A program made the position numbers and the translations under genes. A model generated the notes under the pieces. That model saw only the letters and a program-made list of their open reading frames with translations. It had not been told where the DNA came from and searched no databases. Positions 2,043 to 52,985 of a DNA stretch of 56,229 bases are shown here, in pieces (positions within the stretch are counted from its first letter, which is position 1; the number at the start of each line of letters is the position of its first letter). The DNA comes from Acidovorax sp. SRB_14 (GTDB taxonomy: Bacteria; Pseudomonadota; Gammaproteobacteria; Burkholderiales; Burkholderiaceae_C). Location of the stretch: contig NZ_MWOK01000020.1 in assembly GCF_012932145.1 (NCBI RefSeq), forward strand, positions 1 to 56,229. Reading direction: 5' to 3'.

Positions 2043-2089
2043 AAAAGATAGCTATCGGCACATATGTAACAAGGGTTACATGCCGATTC
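2043..2089 (-). repeat. Dispersed two-hairpin element, copy 1
   Basis: Read on the minus strand it begins GAATCGGC and ends GATAGCTAT, matching the end boxes of the other copies. The internal stem has a different sequence (GTAAC/GTTAC in place of AGCGCTT/AAGCGCT) but still pairs, and the distal GCTATC/GATAGC hairpin is intact. It lies in the gltS/lipoprotein intergenic region. Confidence 0.55.
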
Positions 2090-2183
2090 AAGCCCGCGAA
2101 TTTACCACGCCGCCCCGGGGCGCCCGCGCGGGCGCCCAGGCGGCACAATCGGTGCCTTCTCCACATTGCCCCCGCTCCCCACC

Positions 2184-2369
2184 ATGCGCTCTGCCCTTTT
2201 TGCCTTGCTCGTTTGCGCCCTTTGCAGCGGCTGCGCCGTGGTGGCCGTGGCCGATGCGGCGGTGACGGTGGTGGCAACGACCGTGAAGGTCGGCGCCGCC
2301 GTGGTGGGCACGGCGGTGGACGTGGGCGCGGCGGGCGTGCGCGCCTTGGCGGGCAGCGGCGACGAATGA
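2184..2369 (+). CDS. Small predicted lipoprotein
   Basis: A 61-residue protein of unknown function. The ATG at 2184 is chosen over an in-frame TTG 18 bp upstream because it places an ideal lipoprotein signal at the N terminus: Arg2, a hydrophobic stretch, then a lipobox LCSGC with the modifiable Cys near residue 16. The mature part is only about 45 residues, made almost wholly of Ala, Val, Gly and Thr, followed by an acidic end. Such Ala/Val-rich mini-lipoproteins occur in beta- and gammaproteobacteria without assigned roles. It converges with the DUF2242 lipoprotein gene, whose stop is 4 bp away, so their transcripts may overlap. Confidence 0.7.
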   Translation: MRSALFALLVCALCSGCAVVAVADAAVTVVATTVKVGAAVVGTAVDVGAAGVRALAGSGDE

Positions 2370-2373
2370 GCGC

Positions 2374-2973
2374 TCAGTCGGGCAGCTGCGCCGCGTCGGT
2401 CGCGAGATACCCCTTGACCAGGTCGAAGAAGCTTTCATAGAAGCTGCCCGACGCGATGGTCTCGCTGCCCACCTTGACCAGCGACTCGCCCCCACCCGAC
2501 ATGAAGGGCAGCGAGACCGAACCGACGCCGCCGACGCCCAGGCTGGCGGAGTTGTTGCTCTTCTTGAGCGTGTAGCTCTCTTGCAGCGCGGTGACAAAGC
2601 CCAGGCTGATCTTGCCGTCGGCGCTGTCGGGCACGCAGACCACGCGGATCACCATCTGCAGGTGCGACTCGGCCGCGGGCTGGAAGTTTTTCTGGCCCTC
2701 CACCAGTTCGGCCTTGGCGGTGCCGACGATGTAGCCCTGGCTGAGCAGGGCGCGCCGCGCGGCCTCGCAGGTCTGCGCCGGGGTGGCGTCGAACAGGCGC
2801 GAATAGGTGGTGCCGGAGCCGAAGTCTTCTTGCGGCGCAAAGCGCTTGGCCTCCGTGCCGCAGCCCGCGAGCAGGGCCGACAGGCAGGCCGCGCCCGCCC
2901 AGGCGGCGCGCCGCAGCCGCCGCGGCCCTGCGGCTGGAACGGGGGCGCACTCGCGCGTGTGGGACAGACTCAA
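2374..2973 (-). CDS. DUF2242-family lipoprotein
   Basis: A 199-residue predicted outer-membrane or periplasmic lipoprotein of the DUF2242 family, function unknown. The start proposed is TTG at 2971-2973. It has a full AAGGAG Shine-Dalgarno 9 nt upstream and gives a short charged N region, a hydrophobic segment and the lipobox LLAGC. The frame stays open about 160 bp further upstream, but that stretch contains a copy of the dispersed two-hairpin element and is probably not translated. The mature domain contains two conserved-looking Cys (TCEAARRA and VVCVPD) that may pair, and a Gly/Ser-rich segment near residues 155-175. It is separated by about 185 bp from the membrane protein gene upstream. 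Confidence 0.75.
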   Translation of the reverse strand: MSLSHTRECAPVPAAGPRRLRRAAWAGAACLSALLAGCGTEAKRFAPQEDFGSGTTYSRLFDATPAQTCEAARRALLSQGYIVGTAKAELVEGQKNFQPAAESHLQMVIRVVCVPDSADGKISLGFVTALQESYTLKKSNNSASLGVGGVGSVSLPFMSGGGESLVKVGSETIASGSFYESFFDLVKGYLATDAAQLPD

Positions 2974-3085
2974 AACCTGGCACTCCTTGGGGCGTGTTCT
3001 TGCGGGCGACCGGGCCGCGGGGCGCGCGGGGGCAAGCGCCTGGCGGCCGGTTCCGGTGATTTTAAAAGGCCACCGTGCACTTCGC

Positions 3086-3132
3086 TTTTCATAGCTGCTT
3101 GCGCTTGCCCTGCAAGCGTTTGCGGCCGATTT
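3086..3132 (-). repeat. Dispersed two-hairpin element, copy 2
   Basis: Read on the minus strand it starts AAATCGGCC, has the internal inverted repeat ACGCTTG / CAAGCGC and ends AGCTATGAAAA. It sits between the DUF2242 gene and the next minus-strand gene. Confidence 0.75.
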
Positions 3133-3158
3133 CACTGAAACTCAATCCACCACACGCC

Positions 3159-3764
3159 TCAGCGCCCGACCAATGCGCCATACGCCTTGCGCGTGGCCGG
3201 CGACACCGCGGCGAGCAGCTGGTCGTGCGAGGTCTGGTGGCGCGCGAGCATGCGCGCCGACGCCACCGTCTTCGACTTGCAGAACCAGTGGCAGCTGTGC
3301 TGCATCAGGAACAGCTCGGCCGACATCGTGAAGGCCTTGTCGCGCAGGCTGCGACCGGCCTCGTTGCGCGCGGCCGCCTCGATGCCCTGCGCATGGATCT
3401 GCAGCGCCTGGCGCAGGTCGAACGTGGCCGCGGGCAGCAGCCGGTCGGCATAGGGCAGCGCGATCGGCAGCTTGCTCACGCGCGTCTCCTCTGCATCGAC
3501 GCGGGCGAAGTCCGCGGCGAAACGCTTGAACTGCTCGCACAGCGCCACCTCGGTGCCGGCCAGCAGGTTCCAGACCTGCTCGCGGCGCCCGGCATCGCTC
3601 TCGCCCAGCGCGCGCAGGTAGCCCTGGGTCAGGTTCTCCATGAGCTTCTCGATCTGGAACTGCGCCAGGTGGCTGCCCAGCAGCGCAATGCGCCGCGCCT
3701 GGTAGCGCGACTTGAGCAGGTGGGCGCCGAAGGCGATCAGCGCCGCCAGGATCAGGACGTCCAT
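3159..3764 (-). CDS. Conserved hypothetical protein with N-terminal membrane anchor
   Basis: A 201-residue protein I do not recognise by name. It begins with one hydrophobic segment (residues 2-16, VLILAALIAFGAHLL), followed by a soluble, helix-rich, charged domain of about 180 residues, which suggests an inner-membrane-anchored cytoplasmic or periplasmic domain. A small cluster of aromatic residues and two Cys (HSCHWFCKSK) lies near residue 160. The start ATG is 7 nt past the ddh stop, so the two are almost certainly co-transcribed and perhaps translationally coupled; that is the only clue to function. Confidence 0.7.
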   Translation of the reverse strand: MDVLILAALIAFGAHLLKSRYQARRIALLGSHLAQFQIEKLMENLTQGYLRALGESDAGRREQVWNLLAGTEVALCEQFKRFAADFARVDAEETRVSKLPIALPYADRLLPAATFDLRQALQIHAQGIEAAARNEAGRSLRDKAFTMSAELFLMQHSCHWFCKSKTVASARMLARHQTSHDQLLAAVSPATRKAYGALVGR

Positions 3765-3771
3765 GGGCCTT

Positions 3772-4758
3772 CTACAGCAGCTCTGCGCGCAGCTGCTCGG
3801 CGCTCTTGGGCGAGAGCAGGCCGGGCGGCACGTCGAACACGGTCTTGGCGCCGTGCTGGCCCATCTGCGCCATGCGGTGCACGGCGCGCGCATAGGCCAC
3901 GAGCACGCTGGCCGTGAACTCGGGGTTGCTGCCCAGCGTGAGGCCGTACTCGATCACCTGCGTGGCCTCGGCCGTGGTGTTGCCGCTGCGGATCACGAAG
4001 CCGCCATGGGGCATCGCGCCGTGGTCGCGCTGCAGGACCTCGGCGCTGATGAAGTGCACGCTGGTGTCGTACTCGTCGAAGTAGTGCGGCATGGTGACGA
4101 TGGCCTCGCGCACGGCGGCCGCGTCGGCGCCGTCCTGCAGCACGACGAAGCATTCGCGCGTGTGCTTCTGGCGCGTGGACAGCTGGGGGCGCGTGCCGCT
4201 GCGCACCTGCTCGACGGCCGCGGGCACGGGCAGCGTGTACTGCACGCCGCCGGCCACGCCGGGCACGCGGCGGATGGCGTCGGAGTGGCCCTGGCTCAGG
4301 CCCTTGCCCCAGAAGGTGTAGGTGGCGCCGTCGGGCAGCAGGGCCTCGCCCATCACGCGGTTGATCGAGAACATGCCCGGGTCCCAGCCGGCCGAGATCA
4401 GCGCAGTCTTGCGGTTGGCCAGCGCCGGCGCGTTGACGGCAGCGAAGTGCTCGGGAATGCGCGCATGGGTGTCGAAGCTGTCCACGGTGTGGAACAGCGC
4501 GGCCAACTCGGGGCCCTGGCGCGGCAGGTCTTCCTTGGAGCCGCCGCACAGGATCAGTACGTCGATGGCGTCCTGGTGCTGCGCCAGCGCGTCCATCGGG
4601 AACACCGGCGCGCCCGCGTGCAGCGGCGTGAGCTGCGCGGGCGCGCGGCGCGTGAAGATGCCCGCGAGGGCCATGTCGGGGTTGCGGGCAATGCTGGCTT
4701 CAACGCCGCGGCCCAGGTTGCCATAGCCGGCGATGCCGATGCGGATGGTGTCGCTCAT
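3772..4758 (-). CDS. ddh: meso-diaminopimelate D-dehydrogenase
   Basis: NADP-dependent enzyme that reductively aminates tetrahydrodipicolinate directly to meso-diaminopimelate, a one-step branch of lysine and peptidoglycan-precursor synthesis that bypasses the succinylase steps. At 328 residues it matches the family length of about 320-330. An N-terminal Rossmann motif GYGNLGRG (residues 10-17) and family-typical segments such as SAGWDPGMFSINR, WGKGLSQGHSDA and GGFVIRSGNT are present. The ATG at 4758 has AGGAC about 8 nt upstream; a longer open frame further upstream merely shadows the EamA gene. It lies in a minus-strand cluster EamA-ddh-hypothetical. The family is patchily distributed and often transferred, so this copy may coexist with a dap pathway elsewhere. 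Confidence 0.88.
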   Translation of the reverse strand: MSDTIRIGIAGYGNLGRGVEASIARNPDMALAGIFTRRAPAQLTPLHAGAPVFPMDALAQHQDAIDVLILCGGSKEDLPRQGPELAALFHTVDSFDTHARIPEHFAAVNAPALANRKTALISAGWDPGMFSINRVMGEALLPDGATYTFWGKGLSQGHSDAIRRVPGVAGGVQYTLPVPAAVEQVRSGTRPQLSTRQKHTRECFVVLQDGADAAAVREAIVTMPHYFDEYDTSVHFISAEVLQRDHGAMPHGGFVIRSGNTTAEATQVIEYGLTLGSNPEFTASVLVAYARAVHRMAQMGQHGAKTVFDVPPGLLSPKSAEQLRAELL

Positions 4759-4805
4759 AGTGTCGTCCTGTGGTGCTGAAAGAAAAAACAAGAAATGTGC
4801 CCGAT

Positions 4806-5699
4806 TCAGGCGGGGGAACGGGCGCGGCGCTCGGGCGCCAGCTGGCGCGCGCCGTCGAGCACGAGCACGCCGACGGCGGCAAACACCAGGCCATAGGTGG
4901 GCCACTGGCCCGGTGCCACGCTCTCGCCCAGCAGCAGTGCGACCAGCACCAGCAGCACGGGCTCGACGTAGGAGAGCAGGCCGAACAGCCCCATCGGCAG
5001 CCAGCGGCTCGCGGCCATGTACAGCGCGAGCGCCACGGCGCTCACGGCGCCGAGCAGCGGCAGCAGCGCGAGCAGCACCGGGTGCCCGGACACCAGCGGC
5101 AGGCTCGACGGCGCGCGCAGCATGAACCACAGCGCCGCGGGCACCAGCAGTGCCATGTCGAGCCAGTGGCCGCCCAGGTGGTCCGAGCCCAGGCGCCGGC
5201 GCAGCACGAAATAGACGGGGTAGCCGAGCGCGACGACCCCGGTCTCCCACGACATGCCGCCGGCGCGCACCAGCTCGTGCGCCACGCCCGCGGCGGCCAG
5301 CGCCGTGGCCAGCTTGTGCGCGGCCGACAGGCGCTCGCCAAAGCACACGCGCCCGGTCAGCACCATCACCAGCGGCAGCAGGAAGTAGCCCAGCGACACC
5401 GGCAGCGCGCGCCCGTGCAGCGGCGCCCACATGAACAGCCACAGCTGCACGCCCAGCATGGCGGAGCTGGCCAGCAGCAGCAGCGCCGTGCGCGGCGCCT
5501 GGCGCGCGCGCAGCCACAGCGCCCAGACGTTCCTGCCGTCGCCGCGCCAGAGCAGGAAGGCGGTGGTGAAGGGCAGCGTGAGCAGCACGCGCCAGCCAAA
5601 GATCTGCTCGCCATCGAGCGGCGCCAGCAGCGGCGAGAGGTAGTAGATGGCGCCAAACAGGACCGAAGCCAGCACGGACGCAACGATGCCCTTGATCAC
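4806..5699 (-). CDS. EamA/RarD-like drug-metabolite transporter
   Basis: Inner-membrane permease of the drug/metabolite transporter superfamily, with about ten membrane helices in 297 residues and two EamA repeats. The N-terminal KGIVASVLASVLFGAIYYLS and the following LLAPLDGEQIFGWR segment are typical of RarD-like members. The substrate is unknown; small amino-acid-like solutes are common in this family. GTG at 5699 is chosen because it begins right at the first helix; an in-frame TTG 60 bp upstream is possible. It is 47 bp upstream of ddh on the same strand, so the two may be co-transcribed and could serve amino-acid homeostasis, which is inference. Confidence 0.82.
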   Translation of the reverse strand: MIKGIVASVLASVLFGAIYYLSPLLAPLDGEQIFGWRVLLTLPFTTAFLLWRGDGRNVWALWLRARQAPRTALLLLASSAMLGVQLWLFMWAPLHGRALPVSLGYFLLPLVMVLTGRVCFGERLSAAHKLATALAAAGVAHELVRAGGMSWETGVVALGYPVYFVLRRRLGSDHLGGHWLDMALLVPAALWFMLRAPSSLPLVSGHPVLLALLPLLGAVSAVALALYMAASRWLPMGLFGLLSYVEPVLLVLVALLLGESVAPGQWPTYGLVFAAVGVLVLDGARQLAPERRARSPA

Positions 5700-5823
5700 A
5701 GAGAACTGGCTTTCAGCAAAGCGGTGGAAAAGAAAGGGCGCGGCGGGCCCCGGCGGCAACCCGCCATTGTCGGTGATGCGCGCGCGCCCGCCGCGCTGGC
5801 GCGTGGCTTTTCCGCCGCTCTGC

Positions 5824-5930
5824 GGTTATGCCCGCCGAATGTGCAGCACCGTGTGGATAAGCGCGTGCACAAGCCCCGCACACCGCGCCGGCACTGGGTT
5901 TGCGCGGCCTGCCTTAAAAGGAGGCAACCA
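5824..5930 (+). repeat. DnaA-box pair element, copy 1
   Basis: GGTTAT at 5824-5829 and a perfect DnaA-box-like TGTGGATAA at 5852-5860, with the starts exactly 28 bp apart, followed by ACAAGCC, a GCGCCGGCACTGGG segment and CCTTAAAAGG. The same order and the 28-bp spacing recur at 6122, 18621 and 18756. It lies in the 578-bp gap between the EamA and MFS genes, in which I see no gene. Confidence 0.65.
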
Positions 5931-5983
5931 CCCATCCCTGCGCGGCAGCGCGGTGATCGAGAAAATGGCGCAGCGCAAGAATG

Positions 5984-6036
5984 CTATTAATTAAATAGCA
6001 TACAGCGCTGACTGTGCAAGGGCTGGAGCGCTATTT
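5984..6036 (-). repeat. Dispersed two-hairpin element, copy 3
   Basis: On the minus strand it reads AAATAGCGC ... AGCGCTG, ending in the AGCTAT-like box (TGCTAT). The distal hairpin is ATGCTATT/AATAGCAT (5981-6001). It lies between the two DnaA-box elements of this intergenic region. Confidence 0.6.
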
Positions 6037-6121
6037 CATTGAAATAACCTGAAACCCCCGCGCCGGCAGGCTGCGGCGCTTTGTGGCAGCACGGTGACAG
6101 CGCCAACAACCTAGGGTTTGT

Positions 6122-6224
6122 ACTTATACCCAGCCGCTGTGGGCTGTTCTGTGGAAAACCTTCGGTACAATCCGCCAAACCCGCGCCGGCATTGGGCTGC
6201 AACGCGGTGCCCAATTTTTTGGCA
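6122..6224 (+). repeat. DnaA-box pair element, copy 2 (divergent)
   Basis: ACTTAT at 6122 and TGTGGAAAA at 6150, again 28 bp apart, then GCGCCGGCATTGGG starting 33 bp after the box, the same offset as in copy 1. It also contains GGTACAATCC, a plausible -10 (TACAAT at 6165-6170) for the MFS gene downstream. Confidence 0.5.
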
Positions 6225-6277
6225 TGGCTGCAGGTATAGTCCACGGCCCGCCTCCGGGCGCCGGACCCCTCCCTGTT

Positions 6278-7534
6278 GTGACCTCTCTCGCCGCCGCCCC
6301 CGCCAGCGTCTACCGCCACGCCGGCTTCGTCGCCTTTTTGATCGCCCGCCTGGTGGCCGTGTTCGCCACGCAGGTGCAGGCCGTGGTCGTGGCCTGGCAG
6401 GTCTACGACACCACGCACGATCCGCTCGCGCTGGCCTATGTGGGGCTGGCGCAGTTCATTCCGATGCTGTGCCTGCTGCTGCCGGCCGGCGACCTGATCG
6501 ACCGCTTCGACCGCAAGCGCATCCTGGCCGCCAGCTGGAGCGTGGGCGCGCTGTGCAGCGGCCTGCTGTGGTGGCTGTCGGCCGAGGCCACCGCCGGCGT
6601 GACCGGCATCTATGCGGTGCTGGTGCTGTATGGCTGCACGCGCGCGTTCTCGGGGCCGGCGCTGCAAAGCCTGCTGCCGCAGATCGTGCCGCGCGCGCAG
6701 CTGGCGCCGGCGATTGCCGCCAACAGCATGCTGATGCGCGCGGCCAGCATTGGCGGGCCGTTCCTGGGCGGCGTGCTGTATGCGCTGGGCGGCGGCCGGC
6801 TCACCTATGCGCTGTGCCTGGTCTGCTTTGCGCTGGGCGCGCTGCTGCTGGCGCGCGTGGCGGTGGCGCACGCCGGGCCGCTCGCGCCCACGCAGGGCAG
6901 CATGTGGCAGCGCTTTGGCGCGGGCCTGGTGTTCATGCGCTCGCGGCCGATCATTCTGGGCACCATCTCGCTCGACCTGTTCGCCGTGCTGCTGGGCGGC
7001 GTGGTCGCGCTGCTGCCGATCTACGCGAGCGAGGTGCTGCACGTCGGCCCGGCGGGCCTGGGCGCGCTGCGCAGCGCCATCGCGGTGGGCGAAGTGGGCG
7101 CGGGCCTGTACCTGAGCCTGCGCCCGTTCAACCGCCATGTCGGCCGCACCATGTTCATCGCAGTGGCCATTTTTGGCGCGGCCAACCTGGTGTTCGCGCT
7201 GTCGACGCTGTTCTGGCTGTCGTTTGCGGCGCTGCTGGTGGCCGGCGCGGCCGACATGGTGAGCGTCTACATCCGCGGCGCGCTGGTGCAGTTCTCCACG
7301 CCCGACGCGATGCGCGGGCGCGTCAACGCGGTCAACATGTTGTTCATCGGCTCGTCCAACGAGCTCGGCGAGTTCCGCGCCGGCACCAGCGCCGCCTGGC
7401 TAGGCGCCGTGCCCGCGGCCGTGGTCGGCGGGCTGTGCACACTCGCCGTGGTCGGCGGCTGGGCGCTGCTGTTCAAGTCGCTGCGCACCGTGGACCAATT
7501 CGAGCAGGCGGCCGACGCGCCCGCGCGCAGCTGA
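6278..7534 (+). CDS. MFS transporter (EntS-like)
   Basis: Major facilitator superfamily exporter of about 418 residues with twelve predicted helices. The segment after helix 2 has the MFS motif-A-like DLIDRFDRKRIL, and the overall pattern resembles EntS-type and other DHA3-type exporters; the substrate is unknown. GTG at 6278 is preferred because an in-frame ATG at 6224 precedes a TATAGT box (6235-6240) that could be a -10 element and would add a Pro/Gly-rich tail unlike MFS N termini; the ATG cannot be excluded. The TGA stop overlaps the ATG of truC by one base (TGATG), so the two are probably translationally coupled. Confidence 0.83.
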   Translation: MTSLAAAPASVYRHAGFVAFLIARLVAVFATQVQAVVVAWQVYDTTHDPLALAYVGLAQFIPMLCLLLPAGDLIDRFDRKRILAASWSVGALCSGLLWWLSAEATAGVTGIYAVLVLYGCTRAFSGPALQSLLPQIVPRAQLAPAIAANSMLMRAASIGGPFLGGVLYALGGGRLTYALCLVCFALGALLLARVAVAHAGPLAPTQGSMWQRFGAGLVFMRSRPIILGTISLDLFAVLLGGVVALLPIYASEVLHVGPAGLGALRSAIAVGEVGAGLYLSLRPFNRHVGRTMFIAVAIFGAANLVFALSTLFWLSFAALLVAGAADMVSVYIRGALVQFSTPDAMRGRVNAVNMLFIGSSNELGEFRAGTSAAWLGAVPAAVVGGLCTLAVVGGWALLFKSLRTVDQFEQAADAPARS

Positions 7535-8307: not shown

Positions 8308-8309
8308 GC

Positions 8310-11209: not shown

Positions 11210-11248
11210 GCGCCGGCCCGGTCGGCGGCTGACCGCAGATTTCAAGCC

Positions 11249-11298
11249 AAATCGGCCTCCAGCGCTGATGCAGAAAGCGTCTACAACTATGTTTTTTG
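11249..11298 (+). repeat. Dispersed two-hairpin element, copy 4
   Basis: Starts AAATCGGCCTCCAGCGCT and continues with AAAGCGTCTACAACTATG. It overlaps the last codons and stop of the minus-strand FUSC gene (stop at 11287-11289), so the element supplies the 3' end of that gene. Confidence 0.75.
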
Positions 11299-13551
11299 AT
11301 TCTCCACCACCGGCGCTTCCGCGTCGACCGCGCCTGCCACGGGCAGGTCGGGCACGGTGGCCACGAGCGAGGCCAGCACCTGGTCGGCATCGGCACGCAT
11401 CAGGGCGGCCAGCTCCGTGGCCAGCCGCAGGCGGCGCAGCAGCCAGGCACTGAGGTCGCTCTCATACGGACTGGGCAGCGGCTCGGGCCCGGGCGACGCC
11501 CCGGCCTCGGGCGCGTCGGCGGGGGCCTTGCCCAGCAGCAGGGTGCCGATGCGCTCGGCCGCCTGCTCCAGCGGCGCCTGCACCTGTTCGGCCTGCAGCA
11601 GGCCACGGCGCAGCAGCAGCAGGGTCTTGACGGCCGTGAGCTGCGCCAGCAGCTGGTAGCCGCGCGCCTGCAGGTGCTCGAGCGCCGCCAGCGGCGGGCG
11701 CACGGCGCGCGGCTCGGCCAGCGAGCGCTGCGTGGCCTGCACCAGCGCCGAGAGGCTGTCGTAGGCCTCGCGCCGCGCCAGGCGCCAGGCCAGCTCGGGC
11801 GCGTTGTCCACCGCCTGCAGCTGGCCCAGGCCCAGCGACACGCGCGCATGCTGGGCCTGTGCGGCCAGCGTGCGCGCCACCAGCGCGGGCAGCTGCGTGC
11901 GCTCCCACGACGGCAGCACATAGGAAAAGGCCCAGGCGATGCCGGTGCCGATCAGCGTGTCGGCCACGCGCTCGAGCAGCGCAAACGCGGTGCTGCCCCC
12001 GTTGTTGAGCATGTGCGCCTGCAACAGGCCCAGCGTGGTCGCAGCCACTGCCGTGACCAGGTAGCGGCGCACCGCAAAGCCATGGGCCACGCCCTGCGCC
12101 AGCGTGATCCAGATGACCAGCGCCAGCGGCGGCAGGTGGGCCGACAGCAGGCCCAGCGCCAGCACGCAGCCCAGCAAGGTGCCCGCCACCCGGCTGTTGC
12201 GCCGCTCCAGCGTCTGCGCCAGGCTGCCGCGCAGCACCACCACGATCGTCACCAGCATCCAATAAGGATGTGTGCCCCAGGGCAGCAGCTGCGCCACGGC
12301 GTAGCCGGCCGCAATCGCCAGCGCGGCGCGCATGGCGTGGCGCAGCGCCGGCGCCTCCCAGCGCCACAGGCCGGCGAACGGCCGCCACGACCAGGTGGTC
12401 GGGCTGACAAACATCTGCCAGTTGGCGCGCACGACCGCCAGATCGGGCTCGGCCTCGCCGCGCGCCAGCGCGATCAGGCTCAGCACCTCGTCGTTGATGT
12501 GGCCGATGCGCGCGGCCAGGCCGCGCGCCAGCAGCGAGGGCGTGAAACCCGCACCTTCGGTCTCGTGGGGCAGCGCGGCGCCGACCAGCCGCGGGCGCAG
12601 GCTCGGGAACGGCGTAGGCCGGCGGCCCAGCAGCAAGGCATCGGCCAGCCGGGCTACCTCGGCGGTCAGGGCCTGCAGCACGGCGCGCTGGCCCGCCAGG
12701 GCCGACGCCTGGCCCGGCTGGGCGCGCACGGCGTCCAGGTCCAGCTCGCAGGCCAGCAGGTGGTCGCGCATTTCGAGCACCTGCACCAGCATGCCGACCA
12801 GGCGCTGGCGGCGCGGCGTGTTCGGCGACTCGAGCACGACGTCGCGCGCCGCCTGCAGCTGCTCGGCCAGGGCGGCATGCTGGCGCAGCAGCTGGCCCGT
12901 GAGCGGCGCCGGCGCGCTGCCGGGCCGGATCGGGGCGAACTGGCGCGCCTGCACGCGCAGCAGCGCGGCGACAGACAGCAAGGCGTCGGCCAGCAGCTGC
13001 ACGCGGTAGCGCGCGTTGAACAGCCGGTTGATCAGCAGCGCATACGGCAGGTAGAGCACCGCGCCGAGGCCGAAATACAGCGTGGTCGACAGCGCCGCCG
13101 CCAGGGCGTCGCCCCCCTGGTGGACCGGCACGGCCATGGCGAACACCGTGGCCAGCATGATCGCGATGGCGACCGGCGCGCCGCGTTTGCCCCAGGCCAT
13201 GCCCAGAAAGACCAGGAAGGTGGCCGGCACCAGCAGCAGGCCCAGCGCCAGCGGGGAGGCGTACAGCAGCTGCACCGCAAAGAACAGCGGCATGCTCAGC
13301 AGCGGGGCCGGGAGCATCTGCCAGAACTTGCCGCGCTGCGGTGCCACGTTGTCGGGCGGAATCGCCACGATCACGCCCACGGTGGCCGTCGCTGCCGCGA
13401 GCGCGCCCAGCCACAGGTGCACCGCGGTCGAGATCAGCAGCAGGCCCAGGGCCCCGGCCAGGCCGTTGAGCACGTAATGGCTCAGGGCCACGCGCCGCAT
13501 CGCACGGATGCGTGCCGCCATGCGCAGGCGCAGTGCGGTGCGGGTGCTCAT
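11287..13551 (-). CDS. FUSC family (YccS/AaeB-like) inner-membrane protein
   Basis: A large membrane protein of 754 residues with the aromatic-acid exporter/FUSC arrangement: an N-terminal block of about five to six helices (residues 20-190), a cytoplasmic helical region of about 200 residues, a second helix block containing WMLVTIVVVLRGSLAQTLERR (central pore-like FUSC motif) and a long soluble C-terminal tail. Relatives export hydroxylated aromatic acids or have unknown substrates. ATG at 13551 lies 31 nt downstream of the gshA stop, so it probably shares the gshA transcript. The stop codon lies inside a dispersed element. Confidence 0.85.
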   Translation of the reverse strand: MSTRTALRLRMAARIRAMRRVALSHYVLNGLAGALGLLLISTAVHLWLGALAAATATVGVIVAIPPDNVAPQRGKFWQMLPAPLLSMPLFFAVQLLYASPLALGLLLVPATFLVFLGMAWGKRGAPVAIAIMLATVFAMAVPVHQGGDALAAALSTTLYFGLGAVLYLPYALLINRLFNARYRVQLLADALLSVAALLRVQARQFAPIRPGSAPAPLTGQLLRQHAALAEQLQAARDVVLESPNTPRRQRLVGMLVQVLEMRDHLLACELDLDAVRAQPGQASALAGQRAVLQALTAEVARLADALLLGRRPTPFPSLRPRLVGAALPHETEGAGFTPSLLARGLAARIGHINDEVLSLIALARGEAEPDLAVVRANWQMFVSPTTWSWRPFAGLWRWEAPALRHAMRAALAIAAGYAVAQLLPWGTHPYWMLVTIVVVLRGSLAQTLERRNSRVAGTLLGCVLALGLLSAHLPPLALVIWITLAQGVAHGFAVRRYLVTAVAATTLGLLQAHMLNNGGSTAFALLERVADTLIGTGIAWAFSYVLPSWERTQLPALVARTLAAQAQHARVSLGLGQLQAVDNAPELAWRLARREAYDSLSALVQATQRSLAEPRAVRPPLAALEHLQARGYQLLAQLTAVKTLLLLRRGLLQAEQVQAPLEQAAERIGTLLLGKAPADAPEAGASPGPEPLPSPYESDLSAWLLRRLRLATELAALMRADADQVLASLVATVPDLPVAGAVDAEAPVVENQKT

Positions 13552-18154: not shown

Positions 18155-18234
18155 GCCGCGCATTCTGGCCAAGGCGCAGCGGTCCGCCAAGGGTGCTGCC
18201 CCTGCTCCACGCGCTGCGCGCTGCCCCTGAGCTA

Positions 18235-18288
18235 CTATACTTTTGATAGCTTTAGACGCATACACAGCAAGCGATAGAGACATTTTTT
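18235..18288 (-). repeat. Dispersed two-hairpin element, copy 5
   Basis: On the minus strand it contains CTCTATCGCTTGCTG, then AGCTATCAAAAGTATAG, which includes the 3' box and a distal CTAT/ATAG hairpin. It lies between the divergent aminotransferase and DUF427 genes. Confidence 0.6.
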
Positions 18289-18326
18289 GCACAAATGCGG
18301 CCCCCGGCTGCCCAAGGAGTCCCCCC

Positions 18327-18608
18327 ATGAAAGCCACCTGGAATGGCGTGGTCGTTGCCGAGAGCGACGACACCGTGCTGGTCGAAGGCAACCACTACTT
18401 CCCCGAGAGCGCGCTGCGGCACGAATACTTCACCTTCAGCAACCACAAGACCATGTGCCCCTGGAAGGGCCAGGCCACCTACCTGTCGCTGCTGATCAAC
18501 GGCGAACTCAACCCCGAAGCCGCCTGGACCTATGCCGACCCCAAGCCCGAGGCCGACATGGTGCGCGGCCGCGTGGCGTTCTGGAAAGGCGTGCAGGTCA
18601 CCGAGTGA
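18327..18608 (+). CDS. DUF427 domain protein
   Basis: A 93-residue protein of the DUF427 family, function unknown, forming a small beta-rich tunnel-like fold in known structures. Family signatures are visible: WNGVVVAESDDT at the N terminus, EGNHYFP, CPWKGQATY and the AAWTYADPKPEA segment. ATG 18327 has AAGGAG about 9 nt upstream. It is a single gene followed by a tandem repeat region. Confidence 0.88.
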   Translation: MKATWNGVVVAESDDTVLVEGNHYFPESALRHEYFTFSNHKTMCPWKGQATYLSLLINGELNPEAAWTYADPKPEADMVRGRVAFWKGVQVTE

Positions 18609-18870: not shown

Positions 18871-18903
18871 CCACAGCCCGCCGCGGAGCGCGCATCCGAC
18901 GCT

Positions 18904-18952
18904 CTTTTATTGATAGCTTTCAGCGCTTTCCCCGTCTGCGTTACAGCCACTT
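18904..18952 (-). repeat. Dispersed two-hairpin element, copy 6 (degenerate)
   Basis: On the plus strand TTTTATTGATAGCTTTCAGC continues into GCTTTCCCCGTCTGCG, matching the reverse of the consensus at the AGCTAT end and the first internal arm. The GGCC end is decayed. It lies immediately upstream of the DUF938 gene. Confidence 0.45.
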
Positions 18953-18965
18953 TTCCTCTATTTTC

Positions 18966-19625
18966 ATGTCCCTGCCCCAGCACAGCCCTGCCGCCGAGCG
19001 CAACCGCGCGCCCATCCTGGCGCACCTGCAAGCCCTGCTGCCGGCCAGCGGCCGGGCCCTCGAAGTGGCCAGCGGCACCGGTCAGCACGTGGCCTGGTTC
19101 GCCGCCCACCTGCCGCAATGGACCTGGCAGCCCAGCGATGCGCAAGACGACGCGTTCGCCTCCATCACCGCCTGGTGCGCGCACGCCGGCGCACACAACG
19201 TGCTCGCGCCCGTGCTGCTGGACGTGCGGGCGCCGCGCTGGCCCAGCGCCAAGCCGGCCTTTGCCGAGCCGTTCGACCTGATGTACTGCGCCAACATGCT
19301 GCACATCGCGCCCTGGGACTGCTGCGCCGGCCTGATGCAGGGCGCCGCGCGCCACCTCGCGCCGCACGGCCGGCTCGTGACCTATGGGCCCTACCTCGAA
19401 GACGGCGTGCCCACCGCGCCCGGCAACCTGGCGTTCGACGCCAACCTGCGCGAGCGCGACCCGGCCTGGGGCATCCGCCGCCTGGAGGATGTGGCGCGCG
19501 AAGCCGCCCACGCCGGCCTGCGCCTGGCCGCGCGCCACGCCCTGCCCGCCAACAACCTGCTGCTGGTGTTCGAGCGCCAATCGGTGCCCCACCCTTCCGG
19601 CCCACCGCAGGTGGCGTTGGGCTGA
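18966..19625 (+). CDS. DUF938 SAM-dependent methyltransferase-like protein
   Basis: A 219-residue class I methyltransferase-fold protein of the DUF938 family; the substrate is unknown. Motif I is visible as ALEVASGTGQHVAWFA and is followed by the acidic region QPSDAQ. The family-typical CANMLHIAPW and VTYGPY segments are present, as is the C-terminal ANNLLLVF strand. It is a single plus-strand gene with a degenerate palindromic element in its promoter region. Confidence 0.83.
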   Translation: MSLPQHSPAAERNRAPILAHLQALLPASGRALEVASGTGQHVAWFAAHLPQWTWQPSDAQDDAFASITAWCAHAGAHNVLAPVLLDVRAPRWPSAKPAFAEPFDLMYCANMLHIAPWDCCAGLMQGAARHLAPHGRLVTYGPYLEDGVPTAPGNLAFDANLRERDPAWGIRRLEDVAREAAHAGLRLAARHALPANNLLLVFERQSVPHPSGPPQVALG

Positions 19626-27153: not shown

Positions 27154-28551
27154 ATGACCCCCAAAAGCCCCGAACTGCTGCTGCCTGCCGGCTCGCTGGA
27201 GCGCATGCGCGCCGCCTACGACTACGGCGCCGACGCTGTCTATGCCGGCCAGCCGCGCTACAGCCTGCGTGCGCGCAACAACGAATTCCGCGTCGAACAG
27301 ATCGCGCAGGGCATCGCGGAAGCCCATGCGCGCGGCAAGAAATTCTTCCTCACCAGCAACCTGCTGCCGCACAACGACAAAGTACGCACTTACCTGCGCG
27401 ACATCGAGCCCATCATCGCCATGGGCCCGGACGCGCTGATCATGGCCGACCCCGGCCTGATCATGCTGGTGCGCGAGAAGTGGCCGCAGGTGCCCATCCA
27501 CCTCTCGGTGCAGGCCAACACCGTGAACTTCATGGCGGTGAAGTTCTGGCAGACGGTGGGCGTGCAGCGCGTCATCCTCTCGCGCGAGCTGAGCCTCGAC
27601 GAGATCGCGAAGGTCCGCCAGGAATGCCCCGACATGGAACTCGAGGTGTTCGTGCACGGCGCGCTGTGCATCGCCTATTCGGGCCGCTGCCTGCTCTCGG
27701 GCTATTTCAACCGGCGCGACAGCAACCAGGGCACCTGCACCAACGCCTGCCGCTGGAGCTACGCCACGCAGGAAGCCGCCGTGGACCCCACCACCGGCGA
27801 AGCCATGGCCCAGCGCATGGAAGGCGACTTCGATTTCGCCCAGGCCCAGGAAGACGACCACGCCGCCTTTGCCGCCTGCGGTGGCGGCGCGCGCCACCCG
27901 CGGGCCGACCAGGTCTACCTGCTCGAAGAGAAGGAGCGGCCGGGCCAGCTGATGCCCATCATGGAAGACGAGCACGGCACCTACATCCTGAACAGCAAGG
28001 ACCTGCGCGCGGTCGAGCATGTGCAGCGGCTGGTCGATATCGGCGTCGATTCGCTCAAGATCGAAGGCCGCACCAAGAGCCAGTACTACGTCTCTCGCAC
28101 GGCGCAGGTCTACCGCCGGGCCATCGACGATGCCGTGGCCGGCCGCCCGTTCAACCCCGAACTCCTCACCGAGCTCGAGGGCCTGGCCAACCGCGGCTAC
28201 ACCAGCGGCTTTCTCGAGCGCCGTCCCGCCCACGCGTACCAGAACTACGAAAGCGGCAGCTCGCAGATGCGGCGCAGCCAGTTTGTCGGCGAGGTCAAGG
28301 CGCTGCAGGACGGCTGGGCCGAGGTCGAGACCAAGAACCGCTTTGCGGTGGGGGACCTGATCGAGATCGTGCACCCGAGCGGCAACCGCACCATACGCCT
28401 GGAAACCATGCAGGGGCTCGATGGCCAGGCCCTGCAGGCCGCGGCCGGCAGCCCGCTGCGCGTGCGCATTCCCCTGGCCGACGCGGTGGACGGGGCGCTG
28501 CTGGCGCGCGTGCTCGAGTCCGACAAAAATTCAGACCAAATCGGCCCCTAG
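27154..28551 (+). CDS. trhP: Peptidase U32-family tRNA 5-hydroxyuridine synthase TrhP (YegQ)
   Basis: A 465-residue U32-family protein. E. coli YegQ/TrhP hydroxylates U34 of some tRNAs using prephenate and an iron-sulfur cluster. The four Cys expected for that cluster are present (Cys172, Cys179, Cys195, Cys199 in LCIAYSGRC and GTCTNAC). The N terminus PELLLPAGSLERMRAAYDYG is typical. GACAAT at 27142-27147 lies only 6 nt before ATG 27154, so a leaderless or near-leaderless transcript is possible. The last residues (DQIGP) and the TAG stop are encoded by a dispersed element, followed by a strong terminator. Confidence 0.9.
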   Translation: MTPKSPELLLPAGSLERMRAAYDYGADAVYAGQPRYSLRARNNEFRVEQIAQGIAEAHARGKKFFLTSNLLPHNDKVRTYLRDIEPIIAMGPDALIMADPGLIMLVREKWPQVPIHLSVQANTVNFMAVKFWQTVGVQRVILSRELSLDEIAKVRQECPDMELEVFVHGALCIAYSGRCLLSGYFNRRDSNQGTCTNACRWSYATQEAAVDPTTGEAMAQRMEGDFDFAQAQEDDHAAFAACGGGARHPRADQVYLLEEKERPGQLMPIMEDEHGTYILNSKDLRAVEHVQRLVDIGVDSLKIEGRTKSQYYVSRTAQVYRRAIDDAVAGRPFNPELLTELEGLANRGYTSGFLERRPAHAYQNYESGSSQMRRSQFVGEVKALQDGWAEVETKNRFAVGDLIEIVHPSGNRTIRLETMQGLDGQALQAAAGSPLRVRIPLADAVDGALLARVLESDKNSDQIGP

Positions 28552-28590
28552 CGCTTACCCAGCAAGCGCTGATAGCTACTGAAATCATAG
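28538..28590 (+). repeat. Dispersed two-hairpin element, copy 7
   Basis: AAATCGGCCCCTAGCGCTT, loop, then AAGCGCTGATAGCTACTG. Inverted repeat AGCGCTT / AAGCGCT is perfect. It contains the trhP stop codon (TAG at 28549-28551) and runs straight into the intrinsic terminator. Confidence 0.85.
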
Positions 28591-28591
28591 T

Positions 28592-28626
28592 AAAAAAGCC
28601 CGGCGCTCTTGCGAGCGCCGGGCTTT
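28592..28626. terminator. Bidirectional intrinsic terminator
   Basis: Perfect 12-bp stem AGCCCGGCGCTC / GAGCGCCGGGCT with a TTGC loop, preceded by A6 and followed by TTT. It serves the convergent genes trhP (plus) and acnB (minus). Confidence 0.92.
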
Positions 28627-42738: not shown

Positions 42739-42781
42739 AAAGATGAGCGCACAGCGCAATCCCCATCAGGGTTTGCGCATC

Positions 42782-42829
42782 AAAACAGCTGCTAACGCCC
42801 TGGATACCAGCGTTAGCAGCTCTTTTTTT
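42782..42829 (+). terminator. Strong hairpin with T7 between frmA and fghA (variant dispersed element)
   Basis: Perfect 12-bp stem AGCTGCTAACGC (42787-42798) / GCGTTAGCAGCT (42810-42821), 11-nt loop, then CT7. This is a textbook terminator, 11 nt before the fghA start. Reversed, it resembles the dispersed two-hairpin element (ACGCT, TATCCAG, GCGTTAGCAGCT), so it may be a copy recruited as terminator or attenuator. Confidence 0.8.
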
Positions 42830-42840
42830 AGGAGTTAACC

Positions 42841-46006: not shown

Positions 46007-46029
46007 ACGCAAGCACCCGAGGCGCCACC

Positions 46030-47834: not shown

Positions 47835-47840
47835 TTCTGT

Positions 47841-49444: not shown

Positions 49445-49459
49445 CCCGAGAGTTTGAGC

Positions 49460-50731
49460 ATGAACGAATCCCTTGCCACGGTCGACCAGACGGCCCCCGC
49501 CGGCACCGCCACCGCCTTGCCGCCGCCGACCGACACCAACCCCTGGGCCAGCCAGACTGAGATGGCGGCCGAGCCATCGCCGTGGGACGCGAGCGCCCCC
49601 ACGCCGATGGCAGACACGCCCAACGACCCCTGGGCGGCGCTGTCGCCCACCGAGGGCGACGCCGACGCCGGCAGCGACTGGCTGGACGCGCCCGCCGCGG
49701 GCCTGGACGCCATGGGCGCGGCCGATGCGGCCAGTGACGGCTTTGCGCTGCACCAGTTGTGGGACGGCTCGCTGCCCATCGAGTCCTGGATCAACCAGGG
49801 CCTTGACTGGGTGGTGCAGCATTTCCGCCCCTTCTTCCAGACCGTGCGCGGCCCGATCGACAGCACTTTGACCGGTGTCGAGGGGCTGCTGCAGAGCGTG
49901 CCCTCGCTCGCGATGGTTGCGCTGCTGGGCCTGCTGGCCTGGCAGTTCGCCGGCCGGGCGCTGGCCGTCGGCACCGTGGTGTCGCTGCTGCTCGTGGCCA
50001 TGCTGGGCATCTGGTCCGAGGCCATGGTCACGCTGTCGCTGGTGCTCACTTCGCTGGTGTTCTGCCTTGCGATCGGCCTGCCGCTGGGCATTTTCCTGGC
50101 CAGCAGCGACCGCGCCCAGCGCTGGATGCGCCCGCTGCTCGATGCCATGCAGACCACGCCGGCCTTCGTCTACCTGGTGCCCGTGGTGATGCTGTTTGGC
50201 ATTGGCAACGTGCCCGGCGTGATCGTGACCATCGTCTTCGCGCTGCCGCCGCTGGTGCGCCTGACCAACCTGGGCATCCGCCAGGTGCGCCCCGACCTGA
50301 TCGAGGCGGCGCGCGCCTATGGCGCCTCGCCCTGGCAAATGCTGGTGAAGGTGCAGCTGCCGCTGGCCATGCCGTCCATCATGGCTGGCGTGAACCAGGC
50401 GCTGATGCTGTCGCTGTCGATGGTCGTGATCGCCTCGATGATCGCCGTCGGCGGCCTGGGCCAGATGGTGCTGCGCGGCATCGGCCGCCTCGACATGGGG
50501 CTGGCCACCGTCGGCGGCCTGGGCATCGTGCTGCTGGCCATCACGCTCGACCGCATCACGCAGTCGCTGGGCCAGCCGCGCCGCGGCGTGCGCCACTGGT
50601 GGCACACCGGGCCCACGGGCCTGGTGCTGCGCAGCCTGCGCCGGCGCGTGCCGCGCGCGGCCGACGCCTCTGCCGCAGCCTCCAAGGGCCAGCCCGACGC
50701 CGCGGCGCAGCTGGCCTCCCAGCCGCAGTGA
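49460..50731 (+). CDS. proW: Glycine betaine/proline-type ABC transporter permease
   Basis: A 423-residue permease. The first 100 residues are an Asp/Ala/Pro-rich hydrophilic tail like, but longer than, that of E. coli ProW, then a helix pair and the BPD permease core. The ATP-binding-protein contact loop is [25 protein letters not shown] (G-x3-P). Six to seven helices are evident. The C terminus is basic and Ala-rich. It begins 15 bp after proV. Confidence 0.91.
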
Positions 50732-50781
50732 CGCGCTGCAGCGTCCGCCCGTTTTTCCGCAATCGAAAGGAGACCCTCCCG

Positions 50782-51795
50782 ATGAACATTTCCCGCGCGC
50801 TCGCACGCACCATCCTGTCCACCGGCCTGCTCGCCTGGGGGCTGGCCGCCCCGGCCGCCGCCGCCGACCTGCCCGGCAAGGGCATCACCGTGCAGCCGAT
50901 CAAGAGTTCAGTGGCCGAAGAACTGTTCCAGTCGCTGCTGGTGTCCCGCGCGCTTGAAAAGCTCGGCTATACCGTCAAGCCCGCGCAGGAGATCGAGTAC
51001 GCGACCGGCCACCTGTCGCTGGCCAACGGCGACGCGACCTTCCTGGCCAACCACTGGGACCCGCTGCATGTCGCGTTCTTCGAGAACGCCGGCGGCGACG
51101 CCAAGATCTGGCGCAACAGCACCTATGTCAACAACTCGCTGCAGGGCTACCTGATCGACAAGAAGACGGCCGACCAGTACAAGATCACGAACCTCTCGCA
51201 GCTCTCGGACCCGAAGATCGCCGCACTGTTCGACACCAACGGCGACGGCAAGGCCGACCTGACCGGCTGCAACCCCGGCTGGGGCTGCGAACTGGCGATC
51301 GAGCACCACCTCGACGCCTACCAGCTGCGCGGCAGCATCACGCACAATCAAGGCAGCTACGCGGCGCTGATGGCCGACACGATGGCGCGCTACAAGCAGG
51401 GCAAGCCGATCCTCTATTACACCTGGACGCCCTACTGGATCAGCAACGTGCTGCGCCCCGGCAAGGAGGCGGTGTTTCTGCAGGTGCCGTTCTCGGCCCA
51501 GGTGGGCAACCCCTCCAAGACCAGCACCAAGATGGCCGACGGCCGCGACTACGGCTTCATCGTCAACGTGCAGCGCATCGTGGCCAGCAAAGCGTTCACC
51601 GACAAGAACCCCGCCGCCGCCAAGCTGTTCGAGCTGATGAAGCTGCCCGTGGCCGACATCAACGCGCAGAACCAGCGCATGAACAGCGGCGAGAACAAGC
51701 AAAAGGACGTGGAGCGCCACGTGGACGGCTGGATCAAGGCCCACCAGAAGACGTTCGACGGCTGGGTCGCGCAGGCCCTGGCCGCCGCCAAGTAA
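50782..51795 (+). CDS. proX: Glycine betaine-type substrate-binding protein, copy 1
   Basis: A 337-residue periplasmic ligand-binding protein with a Sec signal peptide cut after about residue 27 (before ADLPGKG). The three Trp of the E. coli ProX aromatic cage are represented by NHWDP, NPGWGCE and YYTWTPYW, and the paired Cys that brace the ligand loop are in [10 protein letters not shown]. Glycine betaine or proline betaine is therefore the likely ligand. ATG 50782 follows AAAGGAGA. It is 50 bp after proW. Confidence 0.9.
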
Positions 51796-51801
51796 CAGCC
51801 C

Positions 51802-51849
51802 CATCGGCCCCAGGCGCTCACCGATAGGGCGCCATCAGCTATTTGAAAG
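51802..51849 (+). repeat. Dispersed two-hairpin element, copy 8
   Basis: CATCGGCCCCAGGCGCTCAC ... GGGCGCCATCAGCTATTTGAAA aligns along its whole length with the other copies. Its distal hairpin is extended into the terminator listed next. It lies between the two binding-protein genes. Confidence 0.7.
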
Positions 51850-51868
51850 ATAGCTGATGGCGCCTTTT
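51828..51868 (+). terminator. Intrinsic terminator between proX paralogues
   Basis: Perfect 15-bp stem GGCGCCATCAGCTAT / ATAGCTGATGGCGCC with a 7-nt loop, then TTTT. The stem is built from the 3' half of a dispersed element. It may limit expression of the second proX or require its own promoter. Confidence 0.8.
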
Positions 51869-51920
51869 CGATGCGCCCCGGCGGCCCGTTTCCCTCTCTT
51901 CGCACGCAAAGGAACCCCGC

Positions 51921-52931
51921 ATGATGAACACCCGCCATTTCGCCTCCACCCTGCTCGCCGCCGGCCTGCTGGCCTTGGGCCTGGCAGCGCACGCCGCCGC
52001 CGATCTGCCCGGCAAGGGCGTGAAGGTGCAGCCGCTGCAAAGCGCGCTGACCGAGGAAACCTTCCAGACGCTCCTGGTCAGCCGCGCGCTCGAGAAGCTC
52101 GGCTACGACGTGCAGCCGATCAAGGAAGTCGCCTACCCGACGGCCCACCTGGCCGTGGCCAACGGCGACGCCACCTTCATCGCCAACCACTGGAACCCGC
52201 ACCACTCCGAGTTCTACAAGACCGCCGGCGGCGACGCCAAGCTCTCGCGCCGCGGCGTTTACTCGGCCGGCGCCGCCCAGGGCTACCTGATCGACAAGAA
52301 AACCGCCGACCAGTACAAGATCACCCACCTGAGCCAGCTCACCGACCCGAAGCTGGCCCAACTCTTTGACAGCACCGGCGACGGCAAGGCCGACCTGATC
52401 GGCGCCAGCGCCGGCTGGGGCGGCGAAGCCGTGATCGAGCACCACCTCACCACCTTCAAGCTGCGCGACACCGTGACCTACACGCAGGGCAACTACCCGG
52501 CGCTGATTTCCAATACCGTGGCGCGCTTCAAGGCCGGCAAACCGGTGCTCTACTACGCGTGGACGCCCTACTGGCTGAGCAACGTGCTGCGCCCGGGCAA
52601 GGAAGTCGTCTGGCTCGAAGTGCCTTTCTCGGCCATGCCAGGGCTGCAGGCGGGCACGGACACGCGTCTGCCCAATGGCAAGAACTACGGTTTTCCGCTG
52701 AACAACGAGTACATCGTGGCCAACAAGGCCTTCGTCGAAAAGAACCCGGCCGCCGCCAAGCTGTTCGAAGTCATGGAACTGCCGATTGGCGACATCAGCC
52801 GCCAAAACCGGCGCCTGCGGGACGGCGAGAACCGCCAGCAGGACATCGAGCGCCACACCGACAGCTGGATCAAGGCGCACCAGAAAACCTTTGACGGCTG
52901 GATCGCGCAGGCCATGGCGGCCGCGAAATAA
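51921..52931 (+). CDS. Glycine betaine-type substrate-binding protein, copy 2
   Basis: A 336-residue paralogue of the preceding gene, about 60% identical by eye over the whole mature protein. It has a signal peptide (cut after about residue 26) and the same ADLPGKG mature N terminus. The cage Trp residues are kept ([20 protein letters not shown]) but both loop Cys are replaced (GASAGWGGE), and neighbouring residues differ. It probably feeds the same permease with a different ligand or affinity. A ribosome site (AAGGAA) precedes ATG 51921. Confidence 0.88.
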
Positions 52932-52936
52932 GAGCC

Positions 52937-52985
52937 AAATTGGCCTCTATCGCTTATCCAGCAAGCGCTGACAGCTAGCATTCCA
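52937..52985 (+). repeat. Dispersed two-hairpin element, copy 9
   Basis: AAATTGGCCTCTATCGCTT, ATCCAG, CAAGCGCTGACAGCTAGC; nearly identical in plan to copy 7. It begins 6 bp after the stop of the second proX and is followed by a terminator. The gap 52932-53274 otherwise holds no gene that I can see. Confidence 0.85.

What the first reader, a model, noticed from the sequence alone, without database searches (positions are those of the whole stretch)
2043..52985. Dispersed 45-55 bp two-hairpin element in ten copies, only at gene ends and between genes
Copies at 2043, 3086, 5984, 11249, 18235, 18904, 28538, 42782 (variant), 51802 and 52937, in both orientations. Plan: box AAATYGGCC, an inverted repeat typically AGCGCTT...AAGCGCT, box AGCTAT, and often a second small hairpin GCTAT...ATAGC. 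In divergent copies (2043, 51802) the stem bases differ but still pair, which looks like compensatory change and argues for selection on a folded DNA or RNA. Density is about one per 5.6 kb. It behaves like a REP/MITE-type or 3'-UTR structural element of this lineage; I know of no named function.
Basis: partly seen in the sequence, partly recalled or inferred. Interest (0 to 1): 0.75.

Follow-up and report, generated by a model that had tools for sequence, protein, structure and literature searches.

The report
Abundant 67-bp palindromic repeat in Comamonadaceae

Summary
All ten copies are found again, and the family is genome-wide: 110 distinct copies in 696 kb, which scales to about 600 in 3.85 Mb. 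The exact stem motif has 39 places against 0 for its reversed control. The unit is 67 bp with sharp edges. "Only at gene ends" is too strong: 5979 and 18230 lie in divergent gaps. Convergent gaps (25 of 56) and tandem gaps (55 of 211) carry it far more often than divergent ones (5 of 81), and 17 of 110 copies are in frame inside ORFs. Better evidence for function: consensus columns stay more identical than flanks between two species when the copy was located in a third, also inside genes. Spanned copies are shared at orthologous sites. One nested clade has lost nearly all copies. No RAYT link, GTAG/CGTC tag or Rfam match was found. The element also forms the start of Pfam DUF1010 in three integron ORFs tested. 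Best reading: a REP/RPE-like repeat, spread by old insertion and now kept as a dyad DNA site, probably protein-bound at gene ends.

The parts
2032..2088 (-). divergent copy; the stem letters are almost wholly different, the boxes AATCGGC and GATAGCTAT...ATAGC are kept
   Evidence: R1 E 0.004, not in the training set
3075..3145 (-). copy 13 nt beyond the stop of the ORF 3159-3764(-), tandem gap
   Evidence: R1 61.8 bits (training member); context
5979..6049 (-). copy in a divergent gap (4806-5699 minus / 6278-7534 plus)
   Evidence: R1 60.8 bits (training member); context
11236..11306 (+). copy in a convergent gap, stem partly degenerate
   Evidence: R1 60.9 bits (training member); context
18230..18300 (-). 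copy in a divergent gap, ends 26 nt before the start of ORF 18327-18608(+); 7 of 22 orthologues carry a copy upstream at a similar distance and in the same orientation
   Evidence: R1 48.5 bits (training member)
18897..18967 (-). copy directly upstream of the start of ORF 18966-19625(+); 9 of 21 orthologues carry one upstream at a similar distance and in the same orientation
   Evidence: R1 41.9 bits (training member)
28525..28595 (+). best window copy, overlaps the stop of ORF 27154-28551(+), convergent gap; followed by a separate GC-rich hairpin with T run
   Evidence: R1 71.5 bits (training member); sequence; context
42769..42839 (+). variant copy with a long stem followed by a T run, tandem gap
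   Evidence: R1 52.1 bits (training member); sequence
51788..51858 (+). GC-rich variant copy over the stop of ORF 50782-51795(+); its second hairpin continues into a terminator-like stem with T run
   Evidence: R1 E 1.2e-5, not in the training set; sequence
52924..52994 (+). copy over the stop of ORF 51921-52931(+), followed by a separate terminator-like hairpin
   Evidence: R1 68.0 bits (training member); sequence

Best explanation
A REP/RPE-like interspersed palindromic repeat of the Comamonadaceae. Shown here: a discrete 67-bp unit (TTT - AAATCGGCC - AGCGCTT-N7-AAGCGCT - AGCTAT - AATAGC), 110 copies in 696 kb (scaled: about 600 in the genome), no orientation preference, enriched downstream of genes and rare between divergent genes, sometimes in frame inside housekeeping genes, old and shared at orthologous sites, with consensus columns conserved above their surroundings. 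Inferred: it first spread by insertion, through an unknown and now apparently inactive mover. It is now kept because a lineage-specific DNA-binding protein recognises the dyad (half-sites RGC-N6-CGC on both sides of model column 36) at transcription-unit ends, in the manner of REP/BIME sites that bind gyrase or nucleoid proteins (recalled). A folded RNA or cruciform form is possible but not required.
For: 110 copies in 696 kb: 60 tandem, 28 convergent, 5 divergent, 17 inside ORFs; gaps of 60 nt or more with a copy: 55/211 tandem, 25/56 convergent, 5/81 divergent; tandem orientation 29 same, 31 opposite (convergent v divergent p 1e-7). Background composition outside columns 4-70. Constraint test with the copy located in a third species: intergenic consensus columns 236/282 identical, flanks 359/539, loop 53/86 (p 1e-7); in genes 373/443 v 1105/1441 (p 0.0007). 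One dapE site was labelled intergenic by the caller; moving it gives 217/259 v 293/459 and 392/466 v 1171/1521. In the clade without the repeat 35/48 v 157/220, no difference. No gap over 10 nt in any copy that an alignment of congener pairs spans. WaaA has a stretch about 19 aa longer at the copy in 15 of 18 rows and lacks it in the 3 repeat-less species. Clean presence/absence in the C40:194356 gap.
Against: No binding protein was identified or tested. The conserved GCG arm and box AGCTAT fit protein binding, but 60 of 91 full-length copies also fold into the central helix and copies fold more stably than shuffles (mean z -1.3 and -1.7, control 0.0), so an RNA role is open. Conserved columns could also reflect gene conversion between copies. 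The 36 site comparisons are few and not independent (13 labelled intergenic); single sites vary, for example 12/23 and 16/23. The loss-clade test has only 48 cells, all in genes, and its contrast with the other in-gene sites has p 0.066.
Confidence: 0.45

Rival explanations
1. RNA-level 3'-end element: in either orientation the transcribed hairpin stops RNA polymerase or shields the mRNA 3' end.
For: Position after stops (tandem: core closer to the stop in 39 of 60). Folds on both strands. Canonical terminators are rarer in gaps with a copy: tandem 4/55 v 32/156 (p 0.023), convergent 9/25 v 17/31 (p 0.19), pooled p 0.08.
Against: No T tract in the consensus; window copies 28525 and 52924 are followed by their own terminator-like hairpins. 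Copies also occur upstream of starts and inside genes, 10 along and 7 against the gene. Pairing is not kept by clear compensatory change in this genome.
Confidence: 0.25
2. Selfish or relic mobile palindrome (REP/MITE type) with no host role; its distribution is only what selection against insertion tolerates.
For: Extra in-frame residues at copies in waaA, dapE, xseA, purL. Avoidance of divergent gaps. Patchy spread: 39 of 141 genera sampled in the family.
Against: No polymorphic insertion between congener pairs where alignments span a copy. Consensus columns constrained in the third-species test. No linked transposase found; Y1_Tnp presence does not follow the repeat.
Confidence: 0.18
3. DNA-uptake-type sequence kept by molecular drive: competent cells prefer DNA carrying it, so copies are renewed by recombination even inside genes.
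For: Both orientations, intergenic and intragenic, constraint at DNA level inside genes, wholesale loss in one clade. One match in 72,556 plasmid records at E 1e-5 and none in 50,697 phage records at E 0.01, with the caveat that the same query finds only 9 hits of that score among the 110 own copies.
Against: 67 bp is far longer and 0.16 copies per kb sparser than known uptake sequences (recalled). Some copies add length, so they are not only point changes. Natural competence was not examined.
Confidence: 0.08

Closest known systems
REP/BIME elements (GTAG- or CGTC-tagged palindromes; PMC3733652, passages read)
   Same: Many copies of a short palindrome, mostly intergenic, some in frame in ORFs
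   Different: 67 bp, no tetranucleotide tag, no linked RAYT, ancient orthologous copies
Rickettsia palindromic elements, RPE (described in PMC3733652 passages; original papers recalled)
   Same: In-frame palindromic inserts in protein genes as well as other copies
   Different: Unrelated lineage, no sequence compared, mostly intergenic here, extra length only 5 to about 19 aa and none in some hosts
Beta-proteobacterial repeat element, BRE (PMC3110155, abstract and section 14 read)
   Same: Dispersed repeat listed for several Comamonadaceae, mostly intergenic
   Different: BRE is ~90 bp, 69% GC in Bordetella, sometimes in tandem arrays; this one is 67 bp and AT-richer than its surroundings. BRE letters were not available, so no sequence test
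DUF1010 (PF06231) in integron cassettes
   Same: The start of the DUF1010 profile coincides with the in-frame translation of this element; 3 of 3 plasmid ORFs tested contain it
   Different: DUF1010 is filed as a protein family, and its later part lies outside the element
DNA uptake sequences (USS/DUS; recalled)
   Same: DNA-level upkeep in and between genes, loss in a clade
   Different: Length, density, insertion-like origin

Membership tests
REP (GTAG/CGTC tagged) | GTAG or CGTC tetranucleotide at one end | tested here: not met
   GTAG at columns 63-66 in 9 of 91 full-length copies, CGTC at no column in more than 2
REP (GTAG/CGTC tagged) | short palindrome, many intergenic copies | tested here: met
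   but 67 bp rather than the 20-40 of that paper's abstract
REP/RAYT | linked or co-occurring RAYT transposase | tested here: not met
   one Y1_Tnp in the genome, best model score beside it 8.4 bits; G003, G011, G019, G020 have no Y1_Tnp match but 124-125 copies (only G003 is near complete), G002, G005, G008 have 3-4 Y1_Tnp matches but 0-4 copies
MITE | terminal inverted repeats with target-site duplication and recent mobility | tested here: inconclusive
   no polymorphic insertion in spanned alignments; one clean presence/absence gap, no duplication seen by eye
RPE | in-frame insertion in protein genes | tested here: met
   17 of 110 copies inside ORFs; waaA 15 of 18 rows with extra length, 3 without; prmB and SelO show no net insertion
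RPE | sequence relation to Rickettsia elements | not tested
   no sequence compared
BRE | ~90 bp GC-rich sequence of Hot et al. | not testable with these tools
Rfam structured RNA | match to a curated family | tested here: not met
   window: 0 at gathering score; locus of the best copy: nothing at the copy up to E 5
Intrinsic terminator | hairpin followed by T tract | tested here: not met
   consensus has no T tract; single variants such as 42769 do

The most novel reading that the evidence does not exclude
A genome-wide chromosomal DNA site system, unknown so far: several hundred 67-bp dyad sites upheld at DNA level even inside housekeeping genes by a dedicated trans-acting factor of the Comamonadaceae, and collapsing when a clade loses that factor.
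Probability: 0.3. Interest if true: 0.85.

Novelty: new variant of a known kind. Interest (0 to 1): 0.6.

Why it matters
It is a very common non-coding sequence in many genera of a large environmental family, and my searches found no name for it. If it is a maintained protein-bound site, it marks a chromosome-wide system (topology, termination or uptake) with a natural knock-out clade for finding its partner gene. It also suggests that part of a Pfam family (DUF1010) seen in clinical integrons is a DNA repeat rather than a protein, and shows how such a repeat adds peptides to enzymes such as WaaA.

Tried and rejected
Rejected: chance. Rejected as defining link: RAYT. Tried: a replacing repeat family in the repeat-less clade; the most enriched AT-rich 10-mers there were one inverted repeat in one orthologous gap and one stretch of an orthologous gene, and inverted repeats in two loci of that clade were few (3 and 2); only about 96 kb was looked at. 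Tried: literature by sequence string and by names; the listings gave nothing that describes the element except possibly BRE (open-access PMC only; for most listed papers only the title and start of the abstract were seen). Weak: a first constraint test, was biased by ascertainment and was replaced. In-gene comparisons against a simple insertion: xseA extra length is 8-9 aa against five species and 5-6 against five others, none of them repeat-less; SelO shows no net insert; prmB shows no clear length change against the repeat-less species. So not every in-gene copy is a whole insertion. Loss of the waaA insert by horizontal replacement in the repeat-less clade is not excluded (long branch). The combined p ignores relatedness of rows. 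The count of 111 copies held one copy twice, split at a stretch boundary; one search corrects it to 110 (convergent 28, not 29).
Full report
CHECK. The ten copies are in the sequence. A covariance model R1 was built from 22 copies: 15 from the genome-wide stem search (one of them the window copy at 28538) and 7 more from the window. It finds all ten in the window, including the two not used for training, 51788 (E 1.2e-5) and 2032 (E 0.004), and no other non-overlapping place below E 1. In the whole own genome (3,849,216 bases in 63 contigs) the exact stem pattern has 39 places and its reversed control none; 37 of 39 spacers are 7 nt.

EXTENT. I took 696 kb of the own genome (window, C40:1-400000, C29:1-240000) and found 78 matches in the first 456 kb and 45 in the last 240 kb at E 0.01. 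After merging opposite-strand duplicates, adding the copy at 2032 and joining one copy split at a stretch boundary this is 110 distinct copies, 0.16 per kb, which scales to about 600 per genome (inference). Outside model columns 4-70 the composition of 76 intergenic copies falls to background, so the unit is 67 bp with sharp edges. The window copies have 39-56% GC in a window of 68%.

ANATOMY. Consensus: TTT.......AAATCGGCC.C-AGCGCTT-N7-AAGCGCT...-AGCTAT..AAT..(A/G)TAGC. The central hairpin pairs columns 24-32 with 40-48 and, across a 2x2 loop, 19-21 with 51-53; AGCTAT can instead pair with ATAGC downstream. 60 of 91 full-length own copies have the central helix in their minimum-energy fold; mean z is -1.3 on one strand, -1.7 on the other, 0.0 for random segments. 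Conservation is not symmetric: in 51 copies picked only by the outer boxes, C30, G42, C43, G44 are 47-48 of 51, while G29 (34) and G27 (30) in the left arm are less so. Pairing is 251 of 357 cells over the seven inner pairs, against 236 for shuffles. Compensatory change: A1 shows none beyond shuffles; the box-picked set shows 18 of 37 (15.2 expected) in this genome, 35 of 75 (28.5) in congeners, 30 of 53 (21.1) in other genera and 80 of 156 (61.1) for all distinct copies, p 0.0014 without correction for relatedness. So the stem is not simply a base-paired structure with free letters.

PLACE. Of 110 copies 60 are in tandem gaps, 28 in convergent, 5 in divergent gaps and 17 inside ORFs, while 84.7% of the sample is coding. 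Per gap of at least 60 nt: 55 of 211 tandem, 25 of 56 convergent, 5 of 81 divergent (convergent v divergent p 1e-7, tandem v divergent p 8e-5). Orientation in tandem gaps is 29 same, 31 opposite; inside ORFs 10 along and 7 against the gene. The core is nearer to the upstream stop than to the next start in 39 of 60. The window itself has two clearly divergent-gap copies (5979, 18230) and a third at 2032 whose class depends on a doubtful small ORF. Canonical terminators are rarer in tandem gaps with a copy (4 of 55 v 32 of 156, p 0.023), not significantly in convergent gaps (9 of 25 v 17 of 31) or pooled (p 0.08).

INSIDE GENES. NCBIfam names the eight host ORFs that I tested (of 16 copies inside ORFs in the first 456 kb): dapE, prmB, an ABC-F ATPase, purL, xseA, ydiU/selO, yfiH/pgeF, and waaA (this one as best match but below the cut-off). 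The frame is open across each copy. WaaA is about 19 residues longer there in 15 of 18 rows and shorter in G002, G005 and G008; dapE is 5 residues longer than in G002 and G005; xseA is 8-9 residues longer than in five species and 5-6 longer than in five others, all of which carry the repeat elsewhere; purL is 7 residues longer than the solved 1t3t chain at the copy and xseA 14 longer than 8txr. prmB and SelO show no net insertion. Nine of the 16 in-gene copies in the first 456 kb score 33 bits or more; the weakest could be chance or eroded. In the 240 kb of C29 only 1 of 38 copies is inside an ORF.

AGE AND CONSTRAINT. Orthologues of the ORFs at 18327 and 18966 carry a copy at a similar distance upstream and in the same orientation in 7 of 22 and 9 of 21 loci of Acidovorax, Simplicispira, Giesbergeria and relatives. 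Between congener pairs every copy spanned by an alignment is present nearly gap-free in the partner (largest gap 10 nt); unspanned cases were not counted, and of those looked at one region is replaced in G003. In the C40:193661/194439 gap own and eight species carry the copy while in G003 and G022 the two genes overlap. To avoid ascertainment bias I located copies in one species and compared two others at 36 sites: intergenic consensus columns 236/282 identical, other element columns 284/478, loop 53/86, flanks 359/539; in genes 373/443 v flanks 1105/1441 (tests). One site labelled intergenic there lies in dapE; moving it gives 217/259 v 293/459 and 392/466 v 1171/1521. In the repeat-less pair G002/G005 it is 35/48 v 157/220. 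This is the strongest evidence that something upholds the sequence itself, though the sites are few and related.

SPREAD AND LOSS. In the genus 20 of 23 congeners reach 99-125 matches (125 was the cap), G005 has 4, G002 and G008 none; 0 of 16 genomes from other families of the order. G002, G005 and G008 group together next to G001/G010 in the RbgA tree (96/95 for the three, 82/82 with G001/G010), and G002+G005 likewise in an eight-protein tree. The parsimonious reading is a wholesale loss. No replacement repeat was seen in about 96 kb. Closest named relatives of the window by the RbgA protein are Simplicispira, Giesbergeria and Acidovorax; the own record may be left out there.

MOBILITY LINKS. 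One Y1_Tnp gene in the own genome, no convincing copy near it; Y1_Tnp does not track the repeat across the genus. Phages: 0 of 50,697 records at E 0.01; plasmids: 1 of 72,556 at E 1e-5, 12 at E 0.05. The same query gives only 9 hits of a similar score among the 110 own copies, so plasmid depletion is suggestive only.

DUF1010. Six of the 12 plasmid records matched at E 0.05 have the hit in an ORF named DUF1010; the two looked at are integron arrays with resistance cassettes. All three such ORFs tested match PF06231 and contain the element (R1 36.5-49.5 bits), which covers about the first 22 positions of the profile match. In the own genome 57 weak PF06231 matches appear, none above the cut-off; by my comparison of lists at least 25 of 57 coincide with copies of the element. 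A 2024 paper counts a DUF1010 cassette 42 times in blaGES-5 integrons and calls the protein uncharacterized (PMC11616780, two passages). So the start of this Pfam family looks like the translated repeat.

KNOWN OR NEW. Rfam has nothing at the gathering cut-off in the window and nothing at the best copy. BRE (PMC3110155) differs in length, GC and array form, but its letters were not available. REPs as defined in PMC3733652 need a GTAG or CGTC end; GTAG stands at columns 63-66 in 9 of 91 copies and CGTC at no column in more than 2. The paper searches listed no description of it that I recognised; they cover open-access PMC only. I file it as a new variant of the REP/RPE kind in what it looks like, not as a member of either family.

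MECHANISM. Orientation independence, position and constraint inside coding DNA speak for a DNA-level role more than for an RNA; the dyad of conserved GC blocks about column 36 suggests a protein dimer or tetramer. The partner protein, the mover and the function itself are not shown.

Noticed in passing
L246:3901-4218, L246:5106-5396, L247:2955-3200: DUF1010 ORFs in integron arrays of plasmids contain the element in frame; the start of Pfam PF06231 looks like the translated repeat.
   Followed up: partly
window 50782-51795 and 51921-52931: Two adjacent ORFs with similar N-termini (by eye a duplicated pair), each with a copy of the element at its stop codon, as if gene and element were duplicated together.
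   Followed up: no
L016:1030-1895: The only Y1_Tnp (RAYT-like) gene of the genome, of about 250 aa, lies between GGGGTCAGA-type ends unrelated to the element; Y1_Tnp ORFs of similar length (234-268 aa) are listed in 19 of 25 congeners.
   Followed up: partly
congeners: No xseA match in 10 of 26 genomes of the genus at E 1e-20, including four of the 15 best assemblies.
   Followed up: no
L182, L183, L179 near the RbgA region: In the repeat-less species an orthologous gap holds paired TTCATATAGGA boxes, a possible operator.
   Followed up: no
window 42769-42839: This copy looks like an intrinsic terminator (long stem and T7) only a few bases before the next start codon.
   Followed up: no
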